This document shows, one piece after another, positions 4,067-48,950 of a DNA stretch of 64,000 nucleotides. This DNA comes from Leptolyngbya subtilissima AS-A7 (lineage in GTDB: Bacteria; Cyanobacteriota; Cyanobacteriia; Phormidesmidales; Phormidesmidaceae). The stretch's first letter is position 1; each line of letters starts with the position of its first letter. The position numbers were made by a program, and so were the translations under genes. Location: contig NZ_JAMPKY010000005.1 in assembly GCF_039962255.1 (NCBI RefSeq), forward strand, positions 186,001-250,000, written 5' to 3'. A model generated the notes under the pieces. That model saw only the letters and a program-made list of their open reading frames with translations. It was not told the origin of the DNA and searched no databases.

Positions 4067-5373
4067 CCCTTCGCTAGCCGCAGGCCGCTAAACTGCCACC
4101 GGGCGCTGGGGGGAAAGAAATTGCGGTAGCTGGGGCGAATGTGGTCGGGCGGAGTCACGCAGGATCCACCGCGTAGCACCATTTGGTTGCACATAAACTT
4201 GCCGTTGTATTCTCCCACGGCGCCAGGGGCGGGGCGAAAGCCGGGGTAGGGCAGGTAGGCGCTCTGGGTCCATTCCCACACATCGCCGTAGAGCTGCTGA
4301 AGTTTCTGGGATTTCGATGCGGGTTGCGGGTGCAGATGGTCGGCGGCGAGGAGATTGCCTTGGATAGAAACTCCTGAGGCAGCGACTTCCCATTCGGCTT
4401 CGGTGGGGAGGCGATCGCCCCGCCACTGGGCAAAGGCATCGGCCTCAAAGTAGCTGAGGTGGCATACAGGTGCCGCTGGGTTCACGGGCTGCATGCCGCC
4501 CAGCGTAAACACCCACCACTCCCCGTCGCGCTGCTCCCAGTACAGAGGTGCTTGCCAGCCTTCGCTCTGCACCATGCCCCAGCCCTCAGCGAGCCAGTGG
4601 GCAGCGGTCTGGTAGCCTTTGTCAGCAATAAATTCTAGATATTCGCCGTTGGTGACGAGGCGGTTGGCCAGGGCAAAATCTTGGAGATAGACCCGATGGG
4701 CTGGGCTTTCGTTGTCAAAGGCAAACCCAGAAGATTGATGGCCAAGGTCATAGAGGCCGCCGCGAAAATCCACGAATGCCAGCGGTGTTAGGGGTTGAAC
4801 CTGTCCCAAGGCGACGTCTGAACGGTAGACCGGGCGCAGGGGATTGATTGCTAGGTTGTATTTGAGGTCGGTGAGGATGAGTTCTTGGTGTTGCTGCTCG
4901 TGGTGCAGCCCGAGGGTGGTCAGTTCTGCCACGGCGGGATGGTCGGCGCGATGGCCCTCTCGGGCCGGTCCTTGACCATCGCACAGTAGCCTTTCCATTG
5001 CTGCATCTACATGGGCGCGATATTCGTAGACCTCTTTTACTGTGGGGCGCGACAGCAGGCCGCGCTGAGGTCGAGGATGGCGATCGCCCACTGCCTCATA
5101 GTAGGAGTTAAACAAGTAGCCGTAGCCGGGGTGAAATTCTCGGTAGCCTGCGAGGTGGGGGCGCAGCAGAAAGGTCTCAAAAAACCAGCTAGTGTGGGCT
5201 AGATGCCACTTAGGAGGACTGACATCAGCCATGCTCTGTACGCCATAGTCTTCAATCTCAAGCGGTTCACAGAGGGTCTCGCTGAGGTGGCGCACAGCCC
5301 AATATTGAGCAACCAAATCAGTGGCGGTCAAGGAGACGTCTAGAGGTGGTGCAAGGGGTGAAGAAAGCGTCAT
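4054..5373 (-). CDS. egtB: Hercynine oxygenase, sulfoxide synthase of ergothioneine synthesis
   Basis: EgtB is a non-haem iron enzyme that uses oxygen to join hercynine to a thiol donor. The 439-residue protein has an N-terminal DinB-like domain with the iron ligands: a WHLAHTSWFFE block near residue 56 and the HX3HXE motif HEQQHQE at residues 158-164. It also has a C-terminal formylglycine-generating-enzyme-like domain (about 190-435, with RLPTEAEWE, GDVWEW, LRGGS and RPSYRN). The ATG at 5373 is preferred; a TTG ten codons upstream is possible. The final residues (VDG) are encoded by the flanking repeat, so the repeat has shaped the C-terminus. The sulfur donor cannot be told from sequence alone. 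Confidence 0.92.
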   Translation of the reverse strand: MTLSSPLAPPLDVSLTATDLVAQYWAVRHLSETLCEPLEIEDYGVQSMADVSPPKWHLAHTSWFFETFLLRPHLAGYREFHPGYGYLFNSYYEAVGDRHPRPQRGLLSRPTVKEVYEYRAHVDAAMERLLCDGQGPAREGHRADHPAVAELTTLGLHHEQQHQELILTDLKYNLAINPLRPVYRSDVALGQVQPLTPLAFVDFRGGLYDLGHQSSGFAFDNESPAHRVYLQDFALANRLVTNGEYLEFIADKGYQTAAHWLAEGWGMVQSEGWQAPLYWEQRDGEWWVFTLGGMQPVNPAAPVCHLSYFEADAFAQWRGDRLPTEAEWEVAASGVSIQGNLLAADHLHPQPASKSQKLQQLYGDVWEWTQSAYLPYPGFRPAPGAVGEYNGKFMCNQMVLRGGSCVTPPDHIRPSYRNFFPPSARWQFSGLRLAKGVDG

Positions 5374-44105: not shown

Positions 44106-44127
44106 TGGGGCTGAGTATTGGTAGAAG

Positions 44128-44148
44128 GGCTGTCCTAAGCGGACAGCC
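44128..44148 (+). terminator. Hairpin after the GH57 gene
   Basis: GGCTGTCC and GGACAGCC close the loop TAAGC, 23 bases past the stop codon. There is no T tract. Confidence 0.5.
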
Positions 44149-44238
44149 GAGACGGCTATCCTACAAAACTAGGCACAATCCCTGCGATCGCAACTGGGTA
44201 CTCTAAACACGACAAAATTCTGTCGCTAGAGCATACCT

Positions 44239-45090
44239 ATGGTGTCTTGCATGGTCGTCATCCCTGGAAAAACGGTGCGGATTTCTGTTGGGGTCATGTT
44301 GCTGGGCCTGGTTGAAGTCTGTGGGGCAAGCGTTAGCCCAGTGCGGGCTCAAGCAGGGGCGATCGCACCACCACCGGCCTATTGGGATGCCGTTGAAGAC
44401 GCCAAAACGCCAGAACCCAACGAAGTCTTTAGAGATCTGACCGCCATTACGCGCCAAAACAACGCTCTGACCTGGAATGAGCAGGGCCAAGTTTTAGTCG
44501 CGACCTGGGCCGATTGGGTGGGCTATACCCAAAATGTGGGGCATCAACTGATTGTCACTCGCGATGTCTGGGTGACGGCCATCCCCGACCTGCAAAGCTT
44601 CTGCAAAGCCTATACGCCAACCGCCGAGGTTCCCTTAGCGGCGCGCCTTGGCCAGGTGCTCGGCTTACCACCTGAACCGGCTGCCCAGGCAGCTAATCGT
44701 CGAATGGTTGAGATCTGGGTCGATCCACAGTTTCTCTTTCGCCCTAGCCCCGACCCCGAAATTACTGACCACGAGGCTGAACTGCGCTTTCGCACTGCCA
44801 ATGAGTTTATCTCGGTGCCAATTAGCTATCAGCACTGGTTTTATGCTCAGTACGATCAGCGCTATCAATATCAGGGGCAGCCGATCGCAATCAATGGCGC
44901 AGAACCTCTTAGCGCCTTGCCCTACCCGTGGACTCAGTTGGGCTATACGTATGATTGGGGCGATCGCGCCGACTGGGCTATGCTTGACCCAAATCGCCCA
45001 GACAATGTGGGCCTAAGCGAGTTCGTGATTCGTCAGTGGTCGCCGATCGCAGTCCAAGCCGCGCAGCCAATTGACGATTACTGCCGCTAG
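44239..45090 (+). CDS. Exported protein of unknown function
   Basis: The 283-residue protein has a signal peptide (hydrophobic core about residues 15-32, likely cleavage after VRAQA). The mature part is rich in Trp, Tyr and Asp, without a recognised domain. Features include WNEQGQVLVATWADWVGY and a C-terminal GDRADWAML-DPNRPDN-LSEFVIRQW section ending in a cysteine (DDYCR). A decayed stretch at 47739-47846 resembles this C-terminal section, so the family once had a second copy here. A second Met four codons in could be the start. Confidence 0.7.
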   Translation: MVSCMVVIPGKTVRISVGVMLLGLVEVCGASVSPVRAQAGAIAPPPAYWDAVEDAKTPEPNEVFRDLTAITRQNNALTWNEQGQVLVATWADWVGYTQNVGHQLIVTRDVWVTAIPDLQSFCKAYTPTAEVPLAARLGQVLGLPPEPAAQAANRRMVEIWVDPQFLFRPSPDPEITDHEAELRFRTANEFISVPISYQHWFYAQYDQRYQYQGQPIAINGAEPLSALPYPWTQLGYTYDWGDRADWAMLDPNRPDNVGLSEFVIRQWSPIAVQAAQPIDDYCR

Positions 45091-45104
45091 GGGTACAAAA
45101 CTCG

Positions 45105-45142
45105 AGAATCCCAGCTTTTTCAAAGAATCGGGATTCTGTTTA
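45105..45142 (+). terminator. Terminator hairpin after the exported protein gene
   Basis: AGAATCCC (45105-45112) and GGGATTCT (45130-45137) form a stem with a 17-base loop, followed by GTTTATG, 15 bases past the stop. Confidence 0.5.
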
Positions 45143-45280
45143 TGCTGCGTTACCCAGTAGCCCCTTGACGCGAGTATGTAACCACTCTGGAGTGTTTGCA
45201 AATCTTCAAGGTCTGGCTTCTTTTCTGATTTAAGGGGGAACCCTTTGAAGAGAGAAAAGAATTATTGAAACTTTAGGCTC

Positions 45281-46669
45281 ATGTCATTCTTACTATTTTT
45301 TCTTTCGATTGGTCTTGCTACTGCCACTGGATTACTCTACAGCCAGCTACAGAAAAGTAAAGATGAGAACAAAATAGCTCAGCAGCGTGTTCAAGAGGCT
45401 AGTAAAAGGCTTCAAGCCGCTGATAAAAAATATAGTGGCCTAATTTCAAAGGAAGAAGAGATTAGAAAGCTAGAGTCGCAAACGACTGTACTTCGAGATC
45501 GAATAAAGGTACTTCAGCAACAAGCCGATATTCAAGAGCAAGAAATTAGCTGTAAAATTGAAGCCTTAACTGAGAAGCTTTCAGAGCTTGAAGAGAAAGA
45601 CTTTGTTGAGGATTTTGGCTTCTATGAATCAAAATATGATTTCAAAGAAGCTTTAGAATACAAGCAAAAACTGGACGAAATTCGCTCTAACCAGAAGAGG
45701 CTTATAAAAGATAGGCAAGCGGCAATATGTGATACAGAGTGGACTGTTTCTGGCAGTAAGAAAGAAGGCCGCAAGATGGTTGATAGCTTTTTGAAGCTAG
45801 TTCTTAGAGCATTCAACGGCGAATGTGATGCTGCCGTTGGCAAGGTCAAATATAACAATATACAGACTATGGAGAATCGTATTCGAAAAGCTTACGAGGC
45901 TTTGAATAAGCTCTCGCAAACAACACATTGCGAGATTACACCGAAATATCTGGATTTAAAGATTCAAGAATTACAGCTCACACACGAATATCAGGAAAAG
46001 CGATATCAGGAGCAAGAGGAGCAGCGACAGATCCGTGAACAGATGCGCGAGGAGGAAAAAGCTCAGAAAGAATTAGAAAAAGCAAGGTTGGATGCGGAAA
46101 AGGAAGAGCGTCAATATCAAGATGCTCTGGAGAAAGCCAAGAAAGAAGCAGAAAATGCTACTGGTAAGCTTCAGCAGAACCTCCTGTCTAAAATTGAGGA
46201 GTTAGAAAAGAGAGTTGCTGAGGCGGAAGCCAATAGAGAAAGAGCTGTTTCACAGGCTCAATTAACCAAGACAGGCCATGTCTACGTCATTTCAAACATT
46301 GGCTCATTTGGTGAGGATGTGTACAAAATCGGTATGACAAGACGGCTAAATCCAGAAGAACGCATTAGAGAGCTGAGCGCCGCATCCGTACCGTTCCCGT
46401 TTGACATTCATGCGATGATTTCGTGCAGCAATGCTCCAGAATTGGAAGGAAGGCTTCATAAGATGTTTGACGACAGACGCGTGAACAGCATCAATTCAAG
46501 AAAAGAGTTTTTCAGAGTATCCTTGGAAGAAATAACTAGAGCTGTGAGCCGTATCGATGAAGAGCTTAGCACTTGCACATCCGAAATAAAAATGACTAAA
46601 GTAGCTGAGGCATCTGAGTATCGAAAGTCTTTGGCTCAAACAAGGGCCAGACAAAGTGTTAGTAAGTGA
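45281..46669 (+). CDS. Membrane-anchored coiled-coil DUF4041 protein with T5orf172/GIY-YIG nuclease domain
   Basis: The 462-residue protein begins with a membrane helix (LLFFLSIGLATATGLLY, about 4-20), then a coiled coil (20-105). A DUF4041 region follows (about 110-220, with FYESKYDF, ICDTEWTVSGSKKEGRKM and ENRIRKAYEALNKL), then a second long charged coiled coil (225-325). The C-terminal GIY-YIG-type domain (about 328-415) has GHVYVISN, VYKIGMTRRLNPEERI and the candidate catalytic glutamate in ELEGRLHKMF. The gene is clearly more AT-rich than the window, a sign of transfer. Phage proteins and poorly known bacterial loci use this combination; a defence role is speculation. Confidence 0.82.
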   Translation: MSFLLFFLSIGLATATGLLYSQLQKSKDENKIAQQRVQEASKRLQAADKKYSGLISKEEEIRKLESQTTVLRDRIKVLQQQADIQEQEISCKIEALTEKLSELEEKDFVEDFGFYESKYDFKEALEYKQKLDEIRSNQKRLIKDRQAAICDTEWTVSGSKKEGRKMVDSFLKLVLRAFNGECDAAVGKVKYNNIQTMENRIRKAYEALNKLSQTTHCEITPKYLDLKIQELQLTHEYQEKRYQEQEEQRQIREQMREEEKAQKELEKARLDAEKEERQYQDALEKAKKEAENATGKLQQNLLSKIEELEKRVAEAEANRERAVSQAQLTKTGHVYVISNIGSFGEDVYKIGMTRRLNPEERIRELSAASVPFPFDIHAMISCSNAPELEGRLHKMFDDRRVNSINSRKEFFRVSLEEITRAVSRIDEELSTCTSEIKMTKVAEASEYRKSLAQTRARQSVSK

Positions 46670-46697
46670 TTAAGGTGAAATAAAATAAAACTCAACA

Positions 46698-46723
46698 TTG
46701 GGTTTCGCTAGCGTTCTACCCAA
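46698..46723. repeat. TTGGGTTTCGCTAGCG-type intergenic repeat, copy 1
   Basis: TTGGGT (46698-46703) and ACCCAA (46718-46723) flank TTCGCTAGCGTTCT and are followed by CTTACGGT. A related copy at 47712-47739 reads AGGTTCCGCTAACGC then CCAACCTATGGT. The two copies bracket the membrane-protein gene of the island. Confidence 0.6.
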
Positions 46724-46849
46724 CTTACGGTTCTGCTGAAACAGCTAGGCAGATATTAGATATCTGAAAGAGTACAATTTTGCTATTAGTCAGCAAGGTG
46801 TGTCACTACTTTGTGTGATACATCGAAGGCACATCTTGAGAACAAAGCC

Positions 46850-47653
46850 ATGGCTCTCAACGGTACATTAGGTCCAAAAGGTCAACGACCAACCTCGAGA
46901 CGGCAACTGGCAAAATATATCATCTTACGAAGCACTGTAATAGGGCTGATGTCAGGGGCCATACTGGGGTCTCTTTTTGGCTTTTTTCCACTTCCGCTTC
47001 TCTTGATCTTGACAGGAATAGTCGGTGCTGGCTTGGGATTGGGATTGGGGTTGATTAATGGGCTACTATTGAGTGCTACAACGTGCCTGTTTTTTTACCC
47101 ACTACGGTCAGTTGGGCTCTATCACCTCATAGCCAAAGTGATAGGTGCTTTGATAGCTGGGGGTGGGGCTGCTGTCTTTGGGCCTTGGTATTTTTCATCG
47201 CAAGCAATGACGCCTAATTCAGCTGTGACAATTGGCTTTGGCTCTGTAATAGCGTCTATTATTGCTGGTTGGGCTGGCGGGCTGGCGGGGCAAAACATTG
47301 CCCAGTGGTATGAACAAAAAAGTCTAGCTGCTCAGCATAAATCAGTAATTAGACAAACTTCGTCTGGTGCAAACTCTTTGCAGAAGCTGAAGCGATATTT
47401 GGGCGATATTTTATCGTCACAAAAGGCCGGCTGGATTAGTATTGCTATTTTCTCGTTATTTAGCTTTTTTCTGAGAAACAGGGTTCTGCGGTTTCTAGTC
47501 TGCGGCGATCTGGTTACAGATGCATATGCTTGTCTCCCATCTCCTCGCCTTTATACTTCGGTCATAGAAGGCTTTAAATTCGCTCTTCCTATTACCTTCC
47601 TAATCACGTTGATAGTGGTACTACTGCAACGACTATATACAAAGCGTATGTAG
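46850..47653 (+). CDS. Multi-spanning membrane protein of unknown function
   Basis: The 267-residue protein has about six hydrophobic segments (near 28-45, 48-75, 95-115, 125-155, 195-210 and 238-258), with glycine-rich helices such as GIVGAGLGLGLGLINGLL. No family was recognised. The ATG at 46850 is preferred to a TTG 13 codons upstream. It follows the DUF4041/GIY-YIG gene by 180 bases in the same direction, shares its lower GC content and is bracketed by two related repeats, so both were probably acquired together. Confidence 0.6.
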   Translation: MALNGTLGPKGQRPTSRRQLAKYIILRSTVIGLMSGAILGSLFGFFPLPLLLILTGIVGAGLGLGLGLINGLLLSATTCLFFYPLRSVGLYHLIAKVIGALIAGGGAAVFGPWYFSSQAMTPNSAVTIGFGSVIASIIAGWAGGLAGQNIAQWYEQKSLAAQHKSVIRQTSSGANSLQKLKRYLGDILSSQKAGWISIAIFSLFSFFLRNRVLRFLVCGDLVTDAYACLPSPRLYTSVIEGFKFALPITFLITLIVVLLQRLYTKRM

Positions 47654-47711
47654 TCGAATAACACTGGATTAGGCTAACGAGAATGCAACTTAGCATGAGA
47701 CTCGGCTTGGT

Positions 47712-47739
47712 TAGGTTCCGCTAACGCTTTGCCAACCTA
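47712..47739. repeat. TTGGGTTTCGCTAGCG-type intergenic repeat, copy 2
   Basis: TAGGTT (47712-47717) and AACCTA (47734-47739) flank a CCGCTAACGC core. It matches the copy at 46698 and closes the AT-richer island on its right side. Confidence 0.5.
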
Positions 47740-47846
47740 TGGTGTTGCTGTACTGCGATCGCGCCGCCTTTGACCTAAACCGCCTGGACGTAAGCGAGTT
47801 TGTGAGCCGCCAGACTGATCGTCCTCAAGGCAGCGCAGCGTGTTGA
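47739..47846 (+). pseudogene. Remnant resembling the C-terminus of the exported protein at 44239
   Basis: A 35-codon frame contains CDRAAFDLNRLDVSEFVSRQ. It lines up with the C-terminal section of the protein at 44239-45090 (DRA, then DPNRPD, then LSEFVIRQ), with small gaps. The rest of the gene is absent. It may be what is left of a duplicated gene after the two-gene island inserted or after deletion. The similarity is at protein level and short. Confidence 0.4.
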
Positions 47847-47945
47847 CAATTGCTGTCGCCAAAGGGTCAGGGCTCAAGGCACTAGGAAACTGACAACTTT
47901 AGTGATTAAGAACTATTCTCAAGAAGATGGCTTTTTCTCTCTGGC

Positions 47946-48950
47946 ATGGCTAAACAACCCTTCGCAAAATTTCCGACGGCCTGGTCGCGGCGTCAGTTTC
48001 TGGGCTGGGGGGCTGGGGGCGTTGGGGCCGTCGCGACAGCGGCAGTGGTGGGGTCAACCTGGGTGGGACGAACGCAGGCCGCGCGCATTCCCCCATTGCC
48101 CGAGGGTTACGGGCCGCCGACCGACAATAGCTTTGACCCTATGGCCCTGCTGCGAGACTTTGACTACGGCACTCTCAAGTCAGAAAACGGCCGCCCTGTG
48201 CGCGAGTTTGAGGTGACGGCTAACAGCTCACCCCTCCAGCTCAACAGTGCCATTACCTTCATGAGCTGGAACCTCAACGGCAGAGTTCCAGGCCCTACCA
48301 TGCGGGCCAAAGCCGGGGAACGGGTGCGGATTATCTTTCATAACCAAGACGGGCATTCCCACAGCATGCACTTTCACGGCATTCACCCCGCTGAGATGGA
48401 CGGCGTTCAGCCAATTCGCCATGGGCAGACGATGGTGTACGAGTTTGAGGCTGGCCCATTTGGCGTACATCCCTACCATTGCCACGTCGCCCCGGTAACG
48501 CGCCATATCAGCAAGGGGCTCTATGGCCTGTTTATTGTGGATCCACCCGAGGGCCGTCCACCTGCGGACGAGATGGTGCTGGTGATGGGTGGCTTTGACA
48601 TTGACAACGATGGGCACAACGAGCTGTATGCCTTTAACGGCATTCCCAACTACTACCGCGATCACCCAATTCCCATCTACCAAAACCAGCGGGTGCGGCT
48701 GTATCTGCTCAACATGGTCGAGTTTGACGTGGCGGTGACCTTCCACATCCATGCCAACTTGTTTCAAATTTTTCCGACGGGGCGCACCCTCACCTCAACC
48801 GGCGATTCTGACGTGATCACCATGGGCACCGCCGAGCGCCACATTCTGGAGTTTGCCTACCCCTATCCCGGTCAATATATGTTTCATCCCCATCAGGATG
48901 CGATCGCAGAGCACGGCTGCATGGGGCTGTTTGATGTCTTGCCGGCCTAG
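47946..48950 (+). CDS. Tat-exported two-domain multicopper oxidase
   Basis: The 334-residue protein starts with a twin-arginine signal (SRRQFLGWG, residues 14-22). It has two cupredoxin domains. Copper-binding motifs are HSMHFHGIH (139-147), HPYHCHVAPVTRH (175-187, with C179 for a type 1 site), FHIHANLF (267-273) and MFHPHQDAIAEHGCMG (312-326). The size and arrangement fit two-domain multicopper oxidases and the related copper nitrite reductases. Substrates may be metal ions or organics; the sequence does not decide. A lipoprotein gene follows 113 bases downstream and may work with it. Confidence 0.85.
   Translation: MAKQPFAKFPTAWSRRQFLGWGAGGVGAVATAAVVGSTWVGRTQAARIPPLPEGYGPPTDNSFDPMALLRDFDYGTLKSENGRPVREFEVTANSSPLQLNSAITFMSWNLNGRVPGPTMRAKAGERVRIIFHNQDGHSHSMHFHGIHPAEMDGVQPIRHGQTMVYEFEAGPFGVHPYHCHVAPVTRHISKGLYGLFIVDPPEGRPPADEMVLVMGGFDIDNDGHNELYAFNGIPNYYRDHPIPIYQNQRVRLYLLNMVEFDVAVTFHIHANLFQIFPTGRTLTSTGDSDVITMGTAERHILEFAYPYPGQYMFHPHQDAIAEHGCMGLFDVLPA

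What the first reader, a model, noticed from the sequence alone, without database searches (positions are those of the whole stretch)
45281..47846. AT-richer two-gene island with a membrane-anchored GIY-YIG nuclease
The DUF4041 plus T5orf172/GIY-YIG protein with an N-terminal membrane helix and coiled coils, and the following membrane protein, have lower GC than their surroundings. Two related repeats bracket the second gene. A decayed piece of the upstream exported-protein gene marks the right edge. A tethered nuclease next to a membrane partner is a reasonable candidate for phage or plasmid defence.
Basis: partly seen in the sequence, partly recalled or inferred. Interest (0 to 1): 0.6.

Follow-up and report, generated by a model that had tools for sequence, protein, structure and literature searches.

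The report
Single-gene phage-entry nuclease insertion (SNIPE)
A cyanobacterium carries, slipped between two ordinary genes, one gene for a membrane-tied DNA-cutting protein of the known anti-virus family SNIPE; the membrane gene next to it is an older resident and not its partner, but elsewhere in the same genome a cousin that has lost its cutting site sits beside a caspase-like gene, which hints at a second, undescribed use of this protein.

Summary
ORF1 (45281-46669) is a full-length SNIPE / PD-lambda-1 homologue: N-terminal membrane helix, DUF4041, GIY-YIG nuclease with the catalytic glutamate in place (E389 = E414 of SNIPE). Anti-phage defence by cutting DNA at the membrane is the best explanation, by homology to a system described in 2026. 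In two close relatives the same locus runs exported protein - ORF2 - multicopper oxidase with no ORF1; ORF1 and ORF2 co-occur only in the window's own genome among 57 searched; ORF2 relatives occur in 0 of 194 SNIPE neighbourhoods. The island is one gene, about 1.66 kb. The decayed gene piece is older. The spot is variable in the genus and holds other defence-like genes. More surprising is a by-product: a cyanobacterial branch of the family, with a member in this genome, has lost the catalytic glutamate and sits tail-to-tail with a gene carrying an FGE-sulfatase domain, mostly fused to a caspase, EAD8 or CHAT domain. On fresh genomes 14 of 15 loci lacking the glutamate had it (13 within 400 bp).

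The parts
44239..45090 (+). exported protein of unknown family (P0003); native left neighbour of the insertion
   Evidence: no Pfam/PADLOC/NCBIfam hit; a match in 17 of 57 genomes at E <= 0.001
45100..46763 (+). inserted stretch (1664 bp) that stands in place of about 129 bp of the G010 locus
   Evidence: blastn to G010 stops at 45099 and resumes at 46764; in G017 it stops at 45099 and resumes at 46765; in G019, which has another insert, it resumes already at 46698
45281..46669 (+). ORF1: SNIPE / PD-lambda-1 homologue, 462 aa
   Evidence: PADLOC PD-Lambda-1 9.4e-165, PHROG 1847 2e-148, Pfam DUF4041 and MUG113/T5orf172; AlphaFold2 pLDDT 81.8, pTM 0.43; dN/dS 0.054 against the 87% identical G023 copy
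45281..45340 (+). N-terminal membrane helix (about residues 1-20)
   Evidence: hydropathy 1.97 over residues 1-19; helix 2-50 in the model
45794..45961 (+). DUF4041 (residues 172-227)
   Evidence: Pfam PF13250 9.2e-27
46274..46555 (+). GIY-YIG nuclease domain (residues 332-425); Y335, Y348, R354/R355, E389, N405 present
   Evidence: Pfam PF10544/PF13455; alignment with the PhiR26_1 PD-lambda-1 protein and 22 relatives
46698..46724 (+). dispersed repeat near the right end of the insertion
   Evidence: 1 exact and 3 inexact copies (2-3 mismatches) in the genome, reversed-pattern control 0; a similar stretch follows the G023 SNIPE gene (35 bases, 85.7%, E 4e-4)
46850..47653 (+). ORF2: membrane protein of unknown family; native to the locus, not part of the SNIPE unit (ATG at 46850; longer TTG frame from 46811)
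   Evidence: adjacent to P0003 without ORF1 in G010, G017 and (order reversed) G011
47755..47866 (+). decayed copy of the 3' end of P0003; older than the insertion
   Evidence: score 125.5 against shuffle maximum 89.5; same piece in G010 and G017
47946..48950 (+). multicopper oxidase, native right neighbour
   Evidence: Pfam PF07731/PF07732; same place in G010 and G017

Best explanation
ORF1 is a one-gene anti-phage system of the SNIPE (PD-lambda-1) family, gained by this strain as a roughly 1.66-kb insertion between an exported-protein gene and ORF2. Shown here: the domain order, the intact catalytic residues, the purifying selection, the empty site in relatives and the lack of a conserved partner. 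Inferred from the E. coli protein: the N-terminal helix holds it in the inner membrane, DUF4041 grips DNA and the phage tape-measure protein as the genome enters, and the GIY-YIG domain cuts the incoming DNA; tethering keeps it off the chromosome. ORF2 is an unrelated resident membrane protein.
For: PADLOC PD-Lambda-1 match over residues 21-459. SNIPE's catalytic E414 aligns with E389; Y335, Y348, R354, R355, N405 kept. The reference used, the PV340555 protein annotated PD-lambda-1, has at its own numbering E414 and the seven other residues named in the paper that I checked. Empty site in G010 and G017. dN/dS 0.054. Tree: sister to the copy of Shackletoniella antarctica (G023), inside a clade that also holds other genera, while the close relatives G010, G017, G019 have no match. 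Neighbours differ from one SNIPE copy to the next, except that G002 and G014 share one place. The same region holds other defence-like genes in the genus. SNIPE mechanism: PMC13190303 (abstract, one whole section and passages).
Against: No activity was tested. N-terminal regions vary in the family, so the cyanobacterial target protein is unknown. Foldseek against the PDB gave no match at E <= 0.001; the GIY-YIG enzyme Slx1 came at ranks 2-4 with E 0.18-0.29. Synonymous divergence of ORF1 from the G023 copy (1.27) exceeds that of one host gene, GH57 (0.54), which suits transfer but could also reflect gene-specific rates. No integrase gene was seen and no clear target duplication or long terminal inverted repeat, so loss in three relatives is not strictly excluded.
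Confidence: 0.88

Rival explanations
1. ORF1 and ORF2 form a two-gene defence unit in which ORF2 is the membrane partner of the nuclease.
For: They are adjacent, on one strand, both GC-poor, with a repeat on either side of ORF2.
Against: ORF2 is in place without ORF1 in G010 and G017; co-occurrence 1 of 57 genomes, chance level; 0 of 194 SNIPE neighbourhoods hold an ORF2 relative at E <= 0.001; ORF1 carries its own hydrophobic helix.
Confidence: 0.05
2. ORF1 is a homing endonuclease or other selfish mobile nuclease rather than a host defence gene.
For: GIY-YIG domains occur in homing enzymes (weak PHROG 18411 hit, 9e-4); ORF1 is an insertion; phages and plasmids carry the family (41 of 50,697 phage records, 186 of 72,556 plasmid records).
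Against: The full-length match is to PD-lambda-1, not to homing enzymes; it interrupts no gene; it has a hydrophobic N-terminal helix; neighbours differ among most copies.
Confidence: 0.05
3. The insertion is ancestral and was lost in G010, G017 and G019.
For: No clear integration scar; G023 of the same genus has an 87% identical copy.
Against: G010 and G017 share a homologous short spacer there and G019 has an unrelated 1.65-kb insert; G023's copy is on another contig than its P0003 and GH57 genes; ORF1 GC 41.5% against 56.5%.
Confidence: 0.1

Closest known systems
SNIPE (PD-lambda-1), E. coli; PMC13190303; the DUF4041 protein of the screen in PMC9519451
   Same: membrane helix, DUF4041, coiled coil, GIY-YIG with the catalytic glutamate; no conserved partner gene
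   Different: about 52% identical over the best 74% of the protein to the Escherichia phage PhiR26_1 copy; cyanobacterial host; target membrane protein unknown; chromosomal insertion
Nuclease-dead SNIPE relatives beside FGE-sulfatase genes (this report; one in the same genome at G000:C10:222136-223248)
   Same: same domain order; a hydrophobic N-terminal helix in 13 of the 14 FGE-linked proteins measured
   Different: catalytic glutamate, R354 and the glycine of YIG lost in the 10 dead ones of that set; FGE gene convergent in 10 of 10 there and in 14 of 15 fresh glutamate-less loci, one exception
EAD8/trypsin and caspase conflict systems with FGE domains (PMC7159879, PMC10907252; passages read)
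   Same: the FGE, EAD8, trypsin, caspase and Pepco/Trypco parts next to the dead paralogues
   Different: neither paper's text holds GIY-YIG (0 occurrences in each), nor PMC7159879 DUF4041 (not looked for in the other); no second copy of the FGE 3' end was found in this genome, so no sign of a diversity-generating element here

Membership tests
SNIPE / PD-lambda-1 | GIY-YIG nuclease with catalytic glutamate (E414) | tested here: met
   E389 aligns with E414; other active-site residues kept
SNIPE / PD-lambda-1 | DUF4041 domain | tested here: met
   PF13250 9.2e-27
SNIPE / PD-lambda-1 | N-terminal membrane anchor | tested here: met
   hydropathy and model helix; topology not measured. The paper reports one or two predicted helices in 66% of homologues
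SNIPE / PD-lambda-1 | works as a single gene | tested here: inconclusive
   no conserved partner: ORF2 relatives in 0 of 194 neighbourhoods, neighbours differ; sufficiency needs an experiment
SNIPE / PD-lambda-1 | protects against phage, cuts DNA during injection, binds tape-measure protein | not testable with these tools
   needs plaque and injection assays
Two-gene defence unit ORF1+ORF2 | genes kept together in relatives | tested here: not met
   co-occurrence 1 of 57; ORF2 without ORF1 in the same locus
Homing endonuclease | sits inside a target gene or intron and spreads by cutting the empty allele | tested here: not met
   intergenic insertion, flanking genes intact; cutting of the empty allele not tested
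SNIPE membership of the glutamate-less paralogues (G000:C10 and kin) | catalytic glutamate | tested here: not met
   L or V in 10 of 14 FGE-linked loci; L in 14 and A in 1 of 17 fresh loci

The most novel reading that the evidence does not exclude
SNIPE has a second life in cyanobacteria. A branch of the family keeps the membrane helix, DUF4041 and a GIY-YIG-like domain but has lost the catalytic residues, and is coupled tail-to-tail with an FGE-domain protein whose head is an exchangeable killer or adaptor (caspase, EAD8 plus a trypsin-like protease, CHAT). In this reading the dead SNIPE is the membrane-bound detector of phage DNA entry and passes the alarm, through the FGE protein, to a protease that stops or kills the cell; the window's genome holds both forms, an active cutter and a detector. 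Two sister genomes show a recent swap: G472 and G433 share 96.4% identical DNA from inside the FGE gene through the dead SNIPE, while the heads differ (caspase with a Pepco-like gene against EAD8 with an EAD8-trypsin-like gene). Association, gene order, catalytic loss and head swap are shown; the signalling is inferred.
Probability: 0.5. Interest if true: 0.78.

Novelty: new member of a known kind. Interest (0 to 1): 0.48.

Why it matters
For the window itself: a single-gene gain of SNIPE in a cyanobacterium, in a region where relatives carry other defence-like genes, extends a newly described defence to another host group. The by-product matters more. If nuclease-dead SNIPE proteins act as entry detectors for caspases and trypsins, then sensing of genome injection is separable from cutting, and the paper's finding that the scaffold probably binds tape-measure proteins would suggest what these peptidase systems sense. 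It also warns that the PADLOC PD-Lambda-1 models call two dead proteins that I scanned as hits (1e-98 and 4e-78), so automatic counts of SNIPE in cyanobacteria may mix cutters and non-cutters.

Tried and rejected
Two-gene unit: rejected. Right-hand gene piece as island edge: rejected, it is in G010 and G017 too. Solved-structure search with ORF1: nothing meaningful (best E 0.07). NCBIfam: only weak hits (best E 0.024). Fold search with the whole model: no significant hit, Slx1 at ranks 2-4. Sigma-70 promoter and terminator scans of 45050-46900: no more sites than in shuffles. Repeat finder on 45090-48000: short two-copy families, many within ORF1, and it did not list the bracket repeat, which was scored separately. 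Diversity-generating element at the paralogue: the FGE 3' end has no second copy in this genome, and a crude motif look for a reverse transcriptase within about 4.5 kb of 14 loci flagged one gene (L080 5158-6783), not followed.

Rows left out of counts: L128, L288 and L289 were dropped as shorter than 250 aa before the count; G074, G506, G589, the two G664 pieces and the weak matches G004 and G039 were left out of the 9-of-9 against 4-of-21 comparison; four of 21 fetched loci were records already seen. Result against the reading: G823 (L335) lacks the glutamate and has no FGE match.
Full report
THE OBSERVATION. The coordinates and the basic description hold. ORF1 (45281-46669, 462 aa) has DUF4041 at residues 172-227 and a T5orf172/MUG113 GIY-YIG domain at 332-425. 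ORF2 (ATG at 46850, or an in-frame TTG at 46811, to 47653) has no family hit in Pfam, PADLOC, PHROGs or NCBIfam and five hydropathy peaks. GC is 41.5% and 45.6% against 56.5% for the window. The two repeats are related beyond chance, and the piece at 47755-47866 is a decayed 3' end of the exported-protein gene.

WHAT ORF1 IS. The PADLOC models for PD-Lambda-1 match ORF1 over residues 21-459 at 9.4e-165, and PHROG 1847 matches at 2e-148. A DUF4041 protein of this kind was found in a functional screen in E. coli (PMC9519451, passages read), and SNIPE (PD-lambda-1) was shown in 2026 to be an inner-membrane nuclease that cuts phage DNA as it is injected, with E414 and DUF4041 essential and the membrane helix keeping it off host DNA (PMC13190303; abstract, the homologue section in full and passages). 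I took the protein annotated PD-lambda-1 in Escherichia phage PhiR26_1 (PV340555) as the reference: at its own numbering it has E414 and the seven other residues that I checked against the paper. E414 aligns with E389 of ORF1, and Y335, Y348, R354, R355 and N405 are also kept. That the latter are GIY-YIG active-site residues is recalled; only E414 is taken from the paper. ORF1 is under purifying selection (dN/dS 0.054 against the G023 copy). An AlphaFold2 model from 32 sequences shows a long N-terminal helix, a DUF4041 region, long helices and a mixed alpha-beta nuclease domain (pLDDT 81.8, pTM 0.43).

ONE GENE, NOT TWO. In G010 the order is GH57 - P0003 - ORF2 - multicopper oxidase - lipoprotein-like - flavin reductase - deaminase-like, with 226 bp between the P0003 and ORF2 matches and no ORF1; G017 is the same with 225 bp (the labels GH57, lipoprotein and deaminase are recalled from the sequence, the others are Pfam hits). 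The window's DNA leaves G010 at 45099 and rejoins at 46764. ORF1 matched 10 of 57 genomes at E <= 0.001, seven of them with a full-length copy at 64% identity or more, the window's own included; ORF2 matched 9 of 57, eight of them strongly; both occur only in the window's genome, which is the chance level (Fisher p = 1). ORF2 relatives occur in 0 of 194 SNIPE neighbourhoods. ORF2 is also GC-poor in G010, G017, G019 and G011 (45-49%), so low GC does not tie it to ORF1. The decayed P0003 piece is in G010 and G017 as well, and in G011 a whole P0003 follows ORF2: an older rearrangement.

WHERE IT LANDED. The surroundings of P0003 vary across the genus: an unclassified 303-aa gene between P0003 and ORF2 in G019; GmrSD-like plus HEPN genes in G009; a PDDEXK_4 nuclease in G004 and, by likeness, G020; Uma2 and nucleotidyltransferase genes and others that look like toxin-antitoxin pairs (recalled) in several. 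Of ten such proteins scanned, PADLOC hits include NsnA (9e-53), PDC-S26 (6e-75), PDC-S17 and PDC-S09, while four of the ten had neither a Pfam nor a PADLOC hit. I read the region as a place where defence-like genes come and go. The repeat at 46698-46724 lies near the right end of the insertion; a similar stretch follows the G023 SNIPE gene and the G019 insert, so it may help cassettes to swap. With four copies found in the genome by a pattern that misses the diverged copy after ORF2, this is a guess.

DISTRIBUTION. At E <= 1e-30, 13 of 386 genomes sampled across the phylum have a relative of ORF1. Of phage records 41 of 50,697, and of plasmid records 186 of 72,556, hold one, among them two Synechococcus phages. 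Neighbours differ among most active copies; G002 and G014 share one place.

THE UNEXPECTED PART. The window's genome has a second relative, 35% identical, at G000:C10:222136-223248. It has leucine at the E414 column. It lies tail-to-tail with a gene for a caspase domain fused to an FGE-sulfatase domain, preceded by a Pepco gene. I therefore examined 194 neighbourhoods of the family plus ORF1. After dropping three short rows, 192 were scored. An FGE gene lies convergent within 400 bp in 15 rows, which are 14 loci (L085 and L107 are one). In those 14 the glutamate is lost in 10 and kept in 4. In the 175 rows without FGE it is kept in 174; the other, L290, is a truncated frame, and a fuller reading of that gene (G074) shows glutamate. 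Two Myxococcota rows have FGE genes farther off and keep it. These 192 rows include duplicates between sources, and 160 of the neighbourhoods came from searches whose patterns favour active-site motifs, so 174 of 175 is not an unbiased rate. Taking only cyanobacterial genome-search loci that I could read, 9 of 9 without and 4 of 21 with the glutamate have the convergent FGE gene (p = 5e-5; the rows left out are listed under tried and rejected, and the loci are not independent).

A TEST ON FRESH GENOMES. I wrote the prediction down (every glutamate-less copy has a convergent FGE gene within 400 bp) and searched 217 genomes of the family of G124. Fourteen have leucine at the column: 13 have the FGE match convergent 28-99 bp away and the fourteenth (L327) 1753 bp away with a transposase-like gene between. 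One (L335, G823) has alanine and no FGE match. So the strict prediction held in 13 of 15 and failed in two, one of them explained by an insertion. One locus has glutamate and no FGE (L334). One is split by a frame break, keeps the glutamate in its second frame, and has the FGE gene next to it (L333). Also against a tidy story, several of these genes are decaying: stops or splits in L321, L322, L326, L328 and L332, a transposase-like insertion at the start of L327, and weak FGE matches in L318 and L324.

WHAT THE MODULE LOOKS LIKE. In the first 14 loci the stop-to-stop gap is 14-145 bp, and Pfam finds FGE in all 14 convergent genes (four, ten). Their head is a caspase in six, EAD8 in five (four of these below Pfam's cut-off), CHAT in one and unrecognised in two. 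Caspase His and Cys motifs are present in all six (motifs recalled). FGE matches number 3 to 21 per genome in 13 genomes, three in the window's own, so adjacency by chance should be rare (inference; no null model was run). The dead rows form one clade (98/92); all 14 FGE-linked rows fall on one side of a branch with support 96/72, which suggests that the link came first and the catalytic loss later (rooting is by midpoint only, and three branches are long). Dead copies are under constraint (dN/dS 0.14-0.20 in three pairs). G472 and G433 share 96.4% identical DNA from inside the FGE gene through the dead SNIPE and beyond, with dead proteins 98.7% identical, but the heads differ: caspase in one, EAD8 in the other. 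The genes before them look like Pepco and EAD8-trypsin respectively, by likeness to the scanned ones of L079 and L080. The tail and the SNIPE-like gene stay together while the effector changes.

NOVELTY. ORF1 is a new member of a known kind. For the FGE-linked, nuclease-dead branch I found nothing in print: DUF4041 with caspase gave 0 papers, no paper held three or more of FGE-sulfatase, GIY-YIG, DUF4041, Pepco, trypco and caspase, SNIPE as a whole word with cyanobacteria and phage gave 0 from 2023 on, and a looser search gave 16 papers, of which I saw ten as a listing, none on this by title. The passages of the SNIPE paper that I saw do not mention caspase (0 occurrences) or paralogues (0), and the closest papers on FGE/EAD8 systems hold no GIY-YIG. 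The library holds open-licence papers only, and I did not read supplements.

Noticed in passing
G000:C10:222136-223248 (L077 8128-9342, -) with L077 5554-7982: Second SNIPE-family gene of the same genome, catalytic glutamate replaced by leucine, tail-to-tail (145 bp) with a caspase-FGE gene preceded by a Pepco gene; a convergent FGE gene recurs in 13 further loci of the first set (4 of them with the glutamate kept) and in 14 of 15 glutamate-less fresh loci.
   Followed up: yes
L277 671-4094 and L278 2311-6199 (G472, G433): Sister genomes with nearly identical dead SNIPE and FGE tail but different effector heads: caspase with a Pepco-like gene against EAD8 with an EAD8-trypsin-like gene.
   Followed up: yes
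window 44106-47945 and loci L043-L054, L056: The stretch around the exported-protein gene carries different defence-like or toxin-antitoxin-like genes in most of the relatives examined.
   Followed up: partly
L335 4783-6195 (G823): A distant family member with alanine at the glutamate column and no FGE match nearby: a separate degenerate lineage, exception to the rule above.
   Followed up: partly
L075 2806-4335 (phage ES18); L076 3359-5026 (Synechococcus phage Ssp-JY37): SNIPE relatives inside phage genomes, glutamate kept; in ES18 one gene separates it from the tape-measure gene, the kind of product that SNIPE is thought to recognise.
   Followed up: no
PADLOC models PDLC03976 and PDLC03977: They score two nuclease-dead paralogues as PD-Lambda-1 at 1e-98 and 4e-78, so automatic counts may include non-cutters.
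   Followed up: partly
window 4069-4776, - (G000:C5:190069-190776): One of three FGE-sulfatase domain matches of this genome lies at the start of the window, 40 kb from ORF1.
   Followed up: no
window 46698-46724 and about 47691-47762: Low-copy dispersed repeat; one copy lies at the right end of the SNIPE insertion and similar ones follow the G023 SNIPE gene and the G019 insert.
   Followed up: partly
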